Shown: piece by piece, positions 25,216 through 26,592 of the stretch
Layout of the letters: every line of letters begins with the position of its first letter
Numbering within the stretch: the first letter of the stretch is position 1
Source: an uncultured Bacilli bacterium
Lineage (GTDB): Bacteria; Bacillota_I; Bacilli_A; RF39; UBA660
Assembly (NCBI GenBank): GCA_947632715.1
Contig: CANRQF010000009.1
Location: 1 to 33,512, forward strand
Direction of reading: 5' to 3'
DNA length: 33,512 bases
Notes under the pieces: generated by a model
The model's input: the letters and a program-made list of their open reading frames with translations, nothing else
Databases searched by the model: none
What the model was told of the DNA's origin: nothing
Made by a program: the position numbers and the translations under genes

Positions 25216-25237
25216 TGGAATAAAGTTTTATACTTTA
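25216..25237 (+). repeat. Left copy of 22-bp inverted repeat (candidate recombination site)
   Basis: TGGAATAAAGTTTTATACTTTA; perfect reverse complement of 26571-26592. Confidence 0.95.
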
Positions 25238-25268
25238 TTCTTACATCTACCTACTATTATCAAATAAA

Positions 25269-25274
25269 ATTATA
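25269..25274 (-). promoter_or_regulatory. Candidate -10 (TATAAT) of the sipW-tasA operon
   Basis: Minus strand TATAAT about 77 nt upstream of the sipW ATG; -35 not convincing. Confidence 0.4.
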
Positions 25275-25412
25275 ACATATTTCGACAAATTTTAACACTA
25301 CTTTTATGTAAAAAAGTTTAAAAACGAATTAAATTTGTCAAAAAAGATACAAAATCAACTGTTTATAGCAGTCAGAATTTAAGTCTTAAAATAGTAAAGA
25401 AAGGAGGAAAAT

Positions 25413-26516
25413 ATGCCAAAAAAAGGAGAAAATATCACTAAAAGAAAAGATGGAAGATATGAAGCTAGATATGTAAAGGAACGAGATCAGTTTGGAAGAA
25501 TCAAAAAATATGGATTTGTATATGCTCAAAGTTATTTAGAAGTAAAGAAAAAGCGAGAAGAAAAATTAAAAAATTTTAAATTAGATAATAAAACAAATTC
25601 ATTGTATTTAAAAGACAACTTTTCTGATTCTATTATTTCTTGGTTTGATACTAAAATTTCTATAAAAGATTCAAGTTATACAAATTATTATTCAATTATT
25701 TATTCTAAAATTATTCCTTTTTTCAAAGATACGAAAGTTATCAATGTTGATGAAAGAAATATTATAGAATATATAAAATCACTTCAAGGACAGAAGTTAA
25801 GTAATAAAAGAATAAGAGATATACTATTAGTTTTAAAACAATTTTTAGAGTATAAAAATATTCATATTAAATTTGAAATGCCAAAAGTTTCTCAAAAAAA
25901 GATTATAACTTTTAATGATAAGGAACTAGCCATTATTGAAAAAGCAACTAGAAATACTAATGATGTTAAAGTTTTTGCTATTTTGTTTGTTCTATTTTCA
26001 GGTGTCCGTATTGGAGAACTTTGTGCTTTAACTTGGAAAGATATTGACCTTGATAATAAACTGATCCATATTACTAAAACTTTAATTAGAGTTAAAAATA
26101 AAGATATTAACTCTAAATTTAAGACAAAGATAATTTTAGATACTCCTAAAACTCAACATTCAATTAGAGATATTCCAATAAACGATACTATACTACCTTA
26201 TTTAGAAAAATTTAAGAAAGATGATAATTGTTATTTTTTAACAGGAAATAATTGTTTTATGACTACTAAAAAATACTATTTATTTTATCTTAAATATCTT
26301 GAATCATTATCAATAAAGAAATATAAATTTCATATTTTAAGGCATACTTTTGCTACTCGTTCTTTACTATGTGGGGTGGACATTAAATCGTTAAGTGAAA
26401 TTTTAGGTCATTCTAGTGTTAAAATCACTTTGGATTTATATGTTCATGTTAAAGATAATGAAAAACTATTTCAAATCAATAAATTAACATTTTTAAATTT
26501 ATCGCAGTCATATTAA
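25413..26516 (+). CDS. Tyrosine recombinase/integrase
   Basis: SGVRIGELCALTWKDID; HILRHTFATRSLLCGVDIKSLSEILGHSSVKITLDLYVHV (R..HxxR..G..Y). Confidence 0.95.
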   Translation: MPKKGENITKRKDGRYEARYVKERDQFGRIKKYGFVYAQSYLEVKKKREEKLKNFKLDNKTNSLYLKDNFSDSIISWFDTKISIKDSSYTNYYSIIYSKIIPFFKDTKVINVDERNIIEYIKSLQGQKLSNKRIRDILLVLKQFLEYKNIHIKFEMPKVSQKKIITFNDKELAIIEKATRNTNDVKVFAILFVLFSGVRIGELCALTWKDIDLDNKLIHITKTLIRVKNKDINSKFKTKIILDTPKTQHSIRDIPINDTILPYLEKFKKDDNCYFLTGNNCFMTTKKYYLFYLKYLESLSIKKYKFHILRHTFATRSLLCGVDIKSLSEILGHSSVKITLDLYVHVKDNEKLFQINKLTFLNLSQSY

Positions 26517-26570
26517 AAAGTCTAAAACTCAAATGTTTGGGCTTTTTTTATAGCTTTTAAAAGATAAATT

Positions 26571-26592
26571 TAAAGTATAAAACTTTATTCCA
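26571..26592 (-). repeat. Right copy of 22-bp inverted repeat (candidate recombination site)
   Basis: TAAAGTATAAAACTTTATTCCA; perfect reverse complement of 25216-25237. Confidence 0.95.

What the first reader, a model, noticed from the sequence alone, without database searches (positions are those of the whole stretch)
25216..26592. Candidate self-inverting switch: tyrosine recombinase segment bounded by a perfect 22-bp inverted repeat, abutting the SipW/TasA fibre operon
Seen: TGGAATAAAGTTTTATACTTTA (25216-25237) and its exact reverse complement (26571-26592) bracket a 1377-bp segment holding one tyrosine recombinase gene and the region between recombinase and sipW, including the candidate minus-strand TATAAT (25269-25274). 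Each copy looks like a tyrosine-recombinase core: complementary arms around an asymmetric AT spacer (left copy GAATAAAGT-TTTAT-ACTTTATTC, 25218-25240). The spacers lie in opposite orientation. Established: tyrosine recombinases invert DNA between oppositely oriented sites (FimB/E, Mpi and gut inverton systems). Inference: flipping would remove the promoter from the fibre operon, giving on/off expression of a surface fibre.
Basis: partly seen in the sequence, partly recalled or inferred. Interest (0 to 1): 0.88.

Follow-up and report, generated by a model that had tools for sequence, protein, structure and literature searches.

The report
Self-flipping promoter cassette for surface proteins
In an uncultured Bacilli-type bacterium, a 1.4-kb piece of DNA carries its own flipping enzyme and an outward-facing promoter; a sister species holds the same piece in the opposite direction, so it is very probably an on/off switch for the secreted-protein operon beside it, and similar self-contained switches turn up in many other Firmicutes.

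Summary
A perfect 22-bp inverted repeat (25216-25237 / 26571-26592), unique in the genome, brackets a tyrosine recombinase with all catalytic residues. A congeneric genome (G036) carries the locus inverted exactly at these repeats: 1376/1377 bases identical, abutting flanks 100% identical. Two orthologous operons are found in both orientations across genomes. Among family relatives 17 of 38 homologues, and among wider Firmicutes hits 52 of 75, have such inverted sites (same-strand control 3 and 5). A sigma-70-like promoter pointing outward at the repeat is enriched (33/44 wide loci; shuffles 3.9). The enzyme resembles Tn1549/Tn916 transposon integrases, with an arm-binding domain and matching 12-nt-spaced AGTC repeats. 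SipW homologues lie near 10 of 18 inverted-repeat loci and 0 of 21 others. The window is in the predicted ON state, G036 in OFF. 'TasA' is not supported: the secreted subunit matches neither TasA/camelysin profiles nor solved structures. Not shown: transcription, switching rate, or which enzyme acts. Verdict: a real self-inverting promoter cassette, a new variant of a known kind (invertons), unusual because a transposon-type integrase travels inside the flipped DNA.

The parts
25216..25240 (+). Left recombination site: 22-bp repeat copy; 9-bp arms around spacer TTTAT (core 25218-25240)
   Evidence: inversion junction in G036
26568..26592 (-). Right recombination site: inverted copy of the repeat, spacer inverted (22-bp repeat 26571-26592)
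25413..26516 (+). Tyrosine recombinase of Tn1549/Tn916 integrase type (367 aa); R199, K246, H307, R310, H333, Y343 invariant in 14 relatives; N-terminal arm-binding-like domain, residues about 8-65
25269..25277 (-). Extended -10 element TGTTATAAT of the outward promoter pointing at sipW; preceded by TTGTCGAAA (25280-25288)
   Evidence: enrichment
25370..25391 (+). Two AGTC direct repeats 12 nt apart (25370, 25382), candidate arm-type integrase sites
26515..26549 (+). Intrinsic-terminator-like hairpin plus T run after the recombinase (-9.7 kcal/mol); in the flipped state it lies between recombinase and sipW
24551..25192 (-). SipW-like signal peptidase, first gene of the controlled operon
   Evidence: TIGR02228 above cut-off; SipW equivalog below cut-off
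23796..24446 (-). Secreted subunit gene (putative SipW substrate), second gene of the operon
   Evidence: no TasA match
19325..23698 (-). Rest of the secreted/surface-protein operon, including a second SipW-like peptidase at 21263-21790
26651..27178 (-). 175-aa protein of unknown family facing the cassette tail to tail; occurs elsewhere beside an Xre regulator without the cassette, so probably not a target

Best explanation
25216-26592 is a self-inverting promoter cassette. Its own integrase binds the two oppositely oriented core sites, probably aided by arm-type AGTC repeats, and recombines them, flipping the whole 1377-bp segment, recombinase included. In the window's orientation (ON) the outward extended -10 promoter just inside the left site drives sipW and the secreted-protein operon. 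After the flip (OFF, as in G036) the promoter points away and sipW lies behind the 3' end of the recombinase gene and its terminator. The recombinase keeps its own upstream region in both states, so the switch stays reversible. Shown: the sites, the intact enzyme, both orientations in nature, the recurrent architecture. Inferred: that this enzyme does it, that the promoter is active, and the on/off effect.
For: Exact inversion at the 22-bp repeats in G036 with 1 SNP in 1377 bp and 100% identity in the abutting flanks, although a housekeeping gene differs by 7% between the two genomes. Inverted sites flank 17/38 family and 52/75 wider recombinase loci (score >=16) against 3 and 5 for direct repeats (shuffles at most 15). 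Both orientations occur at orthologous operons: sipW (G000, G019, G124:C71 ON; G036, G059 OFF) and a second operon (G124:C8, G322 ON; G254:C8, G368:C31 OFF), interspersed on the recombinase tree. Outward promoters at the repeat edge: 10/16 and 33/44 loci against 2.6 and 3.9 in shuffles; inward 3 and 5. sipW of G030, which has no cassette, keeps a similar TTGTCGAAA-ATGTTATAAT sequence upstream. AGTC pair at 11-12 nt in 10/11 clade-A loci, 0/21 loci without the repeats, 0/5 clade-B loci whose enzymes lack the N-terminal domain. AlphaFold model best matches Tn1549 Int.
Against: No reads, so no orientation mixture within one population was seen. No promoter or transcript data; the -35 is weak. In the wider Firmicutes set most assemblies show the likely target on the recombinase's 3' side (24 OFF, 2 ON, 19 with outward genes on both sides), so either OFF predominates or read-through from the recombinase could matter. 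A few cassettes (G129, G254:C17) have no outward-facing neighbour gene. The terminator is clear in G000/G036/G019/G059 only.
Confidence: 0.86

Rival explanations
1. The segment is a minimal mobile element (a Tn916/Tn1549-like transposon reduced to integrase plus ends); opposite orientations reflect separate insertions rather than flipping, and any effect on sipW is incidental.
For: The enzyme is closest to the Tn1549 integrase; sites resemble a Tn1549 circular-intermediate joint (11-bp arms, 5-7 bp crossover; PMC5871717); related cassettes sit at unrelated loci, some without an outward neighbour gene.
Against: G000 and G036 share identical flanks on both sides and differ only by the exact inversion. 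Spacers at the two ends are identical in inverted orientation in many loci, which transposition would not need. SipW homologues are non-randomly close (10/18 vs 0/21), and outward promoters are conserved.
Confidence: 0.07
2. The recombinase is the integrase of the neighbouring mobilizable element (Xre, AAA ATPase, MobV relaxase at 27257-32141), and 25216-25240 is its attachment site; the inversion is a side reaction.
For: Relaxase and replication-type genes lie to the right.
Against: Both core sites flank only the recombinase and no third copy exists in the genome. In G026, G059 and G124 the same cassette occurs without those genes within the fetched stretches. The Xre plus 175-aa pair occurs without the cassette in G021. 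A large serine recombinase at 32580 is a better candidate integrase.
Confidence: 0.04
3. Inversion is real but works the other way round: the operon is transcribed by read-through from the recombinase promoter when the recombinase lies upstream in the same direction (the G036 state), and is off in the window state.
For: Most wider homologues are assembled with the likely target downstream of and co-directional with the recombinase; terminator hairpins are not universal.
Against: Outward promoter next to the repeat in most loci; clear terminator after the recombinase here; sipW of G030, without a cassette, has a similar promoter-like sequence upstream.
Confidence: 0.08

Closest known systems
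Salmonella Hin / fljBA flagellar switch
   Same: The recombinase gene lies inside the inverted segment together with an outward promoter for an adjacent surface-protein operon (Hin as the example of a recombinase within the segment: PMC5903667).
   Different: Hin is a serine recombinase with Fis and an enhancer (own knowledge); here a tyrosine integrase with core and putative arm sites.
fimS (FimB/FimE) and C. difficile RecV switches
   Same: Tyrosine recombinases inverting a promoter segment between short inverted repeats.
   Different: There the recombinase is outside the inverted DNA and small (XerC/D-like, no arm-binding domain; own knowledge). RecV acts on several remote switches (PMC5903667).
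Gut invertons, e.g. hCom2 inverton group 139 with tyrosine recombinase group 35 (PMC11892184)
   Same: Clostridial invertons with about 25-nt repeats and a nearby tyrosine recombinase; some may be the same enzyme family (not tested).
   Different: The group-139 example (Clostridium sp. D5) has about 205 bp between repeats, too short to hold the recombinase; the passages of that paper that I read do not describe recombinase-containing promoter cassettes, and TasA is not mentioned in its main text.
Haloarchaeal virus phiCh1/phiH1 Int1 tail-fibre switch
   Same: A central tyrosine recombinase inside the region it inverts (PMC6471424).
   Different: It swaps tail-fibre gene sequence, not a promoter; archaeal virus.
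Tn1549/Tn916 conjugative transposon integrase
   Same: Fold, sequence, domain plan, and AT-rich imperfect inverted arms around a 5-7 bp crossover.
   Different: There the sites end a transposon and crossover sequences need not match; here two identical sites in inverted orientation enclose only the recombinase gene and its control region.

Membership tests
Invertible promoter (inverton) | Promoter-bearing DNA between oppositely oriented recombination sites | tested here: met
   (promoter by sequence only)
Invertible promoter (inverton) | Both orientations exist in nature | tested here: met
   G036 versus G000/G019; further loci
Invertible promoter (inverton) | Orientation mixture within a clonal population and reversible switching | not testable with these tools
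   no reads held
Invertible promoter (inverton) | Orientation controls transcription of the adjacent operon | not testable with these tools
   inferred from promoter and terminator placement
Tn916/Tn1549-type integrase | Catalytic R-K-H-R-H-Y set | tested here: met
   R199, K246, H307, R310, H333, Y343 invariant in alignment A1
Tn916/Tn1549-type integrase | Core-binding, catalytic and N-terminal arm-binding domains | tested here: met
   (the N-terminal domain rests on predicted strands E8-10, E16-24, E30-38 and helix H41-65)
Tn916/Tn1549-type integrase | Moves a transposon by excision and circular intermediate | not tested
   no dedicated search for an empty site or circle; none seen in passing
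FimB/FimE type DNA invertase | Recombinase outside the inverted segment, catalytic-domain-only size | tested here: not met
   gene inside the segment, 367 aa; NCBIfam DNA-invertase model PRK09870 only 22 bits against cut-off 221
SipW-TasA biofilm fibre operon | SipW signal peptidase | tested here: inconclusive
   TIGR02228 105.6 bits (cut-off 51.85), SipW equivalog 116.7 bits (cut-off 190)
SipW-TasA biofilm fibre operon | TasA/camelysin-family subunit | tested here: not met
   no camelysin (PF12389) or TasA match for 23796-24446; low-confidence model (pLDDT 57) without a significant fold match

The most novel reading that the evidence does not exclude
A widespread, portable class of self-inverting promoter cassettes: a Tn916/Tn1549-type transposon integrase kept with its arm sites, an outward promoter and two identical inverted core sites as one compact 1.1-1.4 kb module, which has been recruited repeatedly across Firmicutes to phase-vary SipW-linked secreted proteins, other surface proteins and polysaccharide loci.
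Probability: 0.55. Interest if true: 0.85.

Novelty: new variant of a known kind. Interest (0 to 1): 0.72.

Why it matters
It gives uncultured gut Bacilli a phase-variation mechanism for a secreted-protein operon with natural ON and OFF alleles differing by one base, a clean natural experiment. It shows a transposon-type integrase working, by all sequence signs, as a dedicated reversible switch whose gene sits inside the DNA it flips, and a simple signature (integrase with matching inverted sites at about -200 and +60 to +150 plus an outward promoter) that can be scanned for in any Firmicutes genome or long-read metagenome. Surveys that look only for short invertons with an outside invertase would tend to miss it.

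Tried and rejected
The exact 22-mer is absent from viral contigs, so no viral carrier was found. The TasA identity was tested by Pfam, NCBIfam, PDB sequence and PDB fold and not supported (model pLDDT 57). A Spo0A link was considered because TTGTCGAA resembles a Spo0A box (own knowledge) and the genome encodes Spo0A; the motif recurs at many switch promoters and at sipW of G030, but this stays a lead. A second recombinase in the own genome (G000:C3) and its counterpart in G036:C18 have no inverted repeats. The 175-aa right-hand gene as a switch target was rejected: it faces the cassette tail to tail and occurs elsewhere without it.

Full report
OBSERVATION. The repeat TGGAATAAAGTTTTATACTTTA is at 25216-25237 and, inverted and without mismatch, at 26571-26592. 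No other match with up to 3 mismatches exists in the window (0.02 expected) or the genome. Between the copies lies one 367-aa tyrosine recombinase, 25413-26516 (+), about 175 bp of divergent upstream DNA and about 55 bp of downstream DNA with a terminator-like hairpin. Each repeat is part of a quasi-palindromic site with 9-bp arms and a 5-bp asymmetric spacer (TTTAT), the spacers being in opposite orientation.

DIRECT EVIDENCE OF INVERSION. The recombinase was searched in 38 genomes of the genus. G036 encodes an identical enzyme on contig C69. Aligned to the window, its flanks are colinear and the segment 25216-26592 lies on the opposite strand, switching exactly within the 22-bp repeats. Built in silico, the inverted window reproduces both G036 junctions base for base; over the 1377 bp there is one difference (25261 G/A), and the abutting flanks are 100% or nearly 100% identical for several hundred bases on each side, with a length-variable stretch near 23500-23750 and divergence only beyond about 27000. 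typA (12283-14091) is 93% identical between the two genomes, so a nearly identical island is shared by two species and differs by the flip. G019 carries the locus at 95% identity in the window's orientation. The repeat is far shorter than usual read lengths, so a misassembly is unlikely, though it cannot be excluded without reads.

A FAMILY OF SUCH CASSETTES. Among 38 testable recombinase homologues in the family, 17 have inverted repeats (score >=16) between the upstream and downstream flanks against 3 for direct repeats; in 75 testable loci from the GTDB contig scan (Lachnospiraceae, Oscillospiraceae, Enterococcus, Blautia, Lacrimispora, others) the numbers are 52 and 5. Most of the direct hits are the palindromic arms themselves or AGTC-type arm motifs. 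Sites differ between loci (TAATAAAGT-ATTGT-ACTTTATTA in G026; TCGTAGAATA-CCTAA-TATTCTACGA in clade B) but keep arms of about 9-10 bp and, in most sites that I inspected by eye, a 5-bp spacer. The repeats lie typically near -200 and +55 to +150 of the gene, closer in clade B.

WHAT IS NEXT TO THEM. Near family cassettes, secreted or surface proteins recur: sipW plus subunit operons (G000, G036, G019, G124:C71, G059), a related operon in G056, a two-gene surface operon in G026 (DUF5305 protein plus an 816-aa protein with a sub-threshold GLUG match), a 744-aa protein in G368:C3, a large surface-type protein in G380 (whose inverted repeat is weak, score 14), and a second conserved operon of small signal-bearing proteins in G124:C8, G322, G254:C8, G368:C31. 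SipW/S26 homologues lie in the fetched stretch for 10 of 18 inverted-repeat loci (the window included) and 0 of 21 loci without repeats; leaving out the two near-copies of the window it is 8/16 against 0/21, Fisher P about 0.0003 by hand. The clade-B hits in that count are longer S26-like matches and less certain SipW homologues. Orthologous operons occur with the cassette both ways: sipW ON in G000, G019, G124:C71 and OFF in G036, G059; the second operon ON in G124:C8, G322 and OFF in G254:C8, G368:C31. On the recombinase tree the state changes at least 7 times among the labelled rows (quick method, some long branches).

MECHANISM. (a) Promoter: in the window the outward strand reads TTGTCGAAATATGTTATAATTTTATT, the -10 ending 31 nt from the repeat. 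Outward promoter-like sites at the repeat edge occur in 10/16 family and 33/44 wider loci, against means of 2.6 and 3.9 in shuffles (maxima 7 and 10) and 3 and 5 on the inward strand (mononucleotide shuffles). G030, which has sipW but no cassette, has TTGTCGAAAATGTTATAAT upstream of sipW. (b) Terminator: -9.7 kcal/mol hairpin with a T run after the recombinase; in the flipped state it separates the recombinase from sipW. (c) Enzyme: closest solved relatives are Tn1549 integrase complexes (6EMY, 6EMZ, 6EN0, fold E 2e-13); the catalytic set is invariant and the model shows an N-terminal three-strand-plus-helix domain as expected for an arm-binding domain. (d) Arm sites: two AGTC direct repeats 11-12 nt apart just upstream of the gene in 10/11 clade-A loci (25370 and 25382 in the window), 8/48 wider loci, 0/21 loci without repeats, 0/5 clade-B loci, whose enzymes lack the N-terminal domain; shuffles about 0. 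Together: the integrase flips the segment; the window shows the predicted ON state and G036 the OFF state. Steps (a)-(d) are sequence evidence; function is inferred.

COMPARISON. It works like Hin (recombinase inside the promoter segment) but with a tyrosine integrase, and like fimS or RecV switches but with the gene inside. Each site resembles the Tn1549 circular-intermediate joint (11-bp AT-rich imperfect inverted repeats around a 5-7 bp crossover; PMC5871717). A tyrosine recombinase inside its invertible region has a precedent in haloviruses phiCh1/phiH1 (PMC6471424). The closest published survey, PMC11892184, links a clostridial inverton group with 25-nt repeats to a tyrosine recombinase group; its example holds about 205 bp between the repeats. 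I found no paper in the library that describes recombinase-containing promoter cassettes of this type or phase variation of SipW operons; subscription papers are mostly missing from that library.

LIMITS. No reads, no transcripts. 'TasA' is not supported at sequence or fold level. In the wider set the assembled state is mostly OFF under my promoter model (24 OFF, 2 ON, 19 with outward genes on both sides); either OFF is the common state or, in some loci, read-through matters. ON/OFF calls there rest on mechanical ORFs.

Noticed in passing
window 19136-27200 versus G036:C105 and C69: Nearly identical DNA (99-100%) shared by two species whose typA differs by 7%: the secreted-protein operon plus switch looks recently transferred or shared by recombination.
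   Followed up: partly
window 23799-24446 versus L034:451-1029: The secreted subunit is only 47% identical between G000 and G019 although the DNA on both sides is 95-98% identical, suggesting allele replacement or diversifying selection on the surface protein.
   Followed up: partly
L231 (G025:C10) and L233 (G026:C13): Other recombinase cassettes with strong inverted repeats (85 nt aligned, and 24 nt) and outward promoter-like sequence lie beside polysaccharide genes (sugar transferases, glycosyltransferases): possible capsule switches in the same genus.
   Followed up: partly
L230 (G007:C63): A related recombinase and a 419-aa ORF lie between two diverging copies of a similar sugar-transferase gene start, suggesting past or ongoing inversion.
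   Followed up: no
window 32580-33512; L111 4110-5721; L112 1-1073; L113: A large serine recombinase lies near the switch and operon in four genomes (in G000 beyond MobV/Xre/AAA genes), so the operon may ride on a serine-recombinase-type mobile island.
   Followed up: partly
window 5598-11486: A 1962-aa protein made of aspartate- and cysteine-rich repeats (DDGS-x-GG-x-GDGxCDRNC), possibly calcium-binding, next to a signal-bearing 209-aa protein (11500-12129).
   Followed up: no
window 18407-18826: ABC transporter ATPase ORF ends just after its signature motif (139 aa), beside a substrate-binding protein gene: probably a broken transporter.
   Followed up: no
G000:C37:8928-10590 (L076): A second, paralogous SipW operon (67% identical SipW) in the same genome; no match to the switch sites was seen there.
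   Followed up: partly
window 27180-27839: The Xre regulator region diverges sharply between G000 and G036 while the adjacent 175-aa gene is identical: a mosaic boundary.
   Followed up: no
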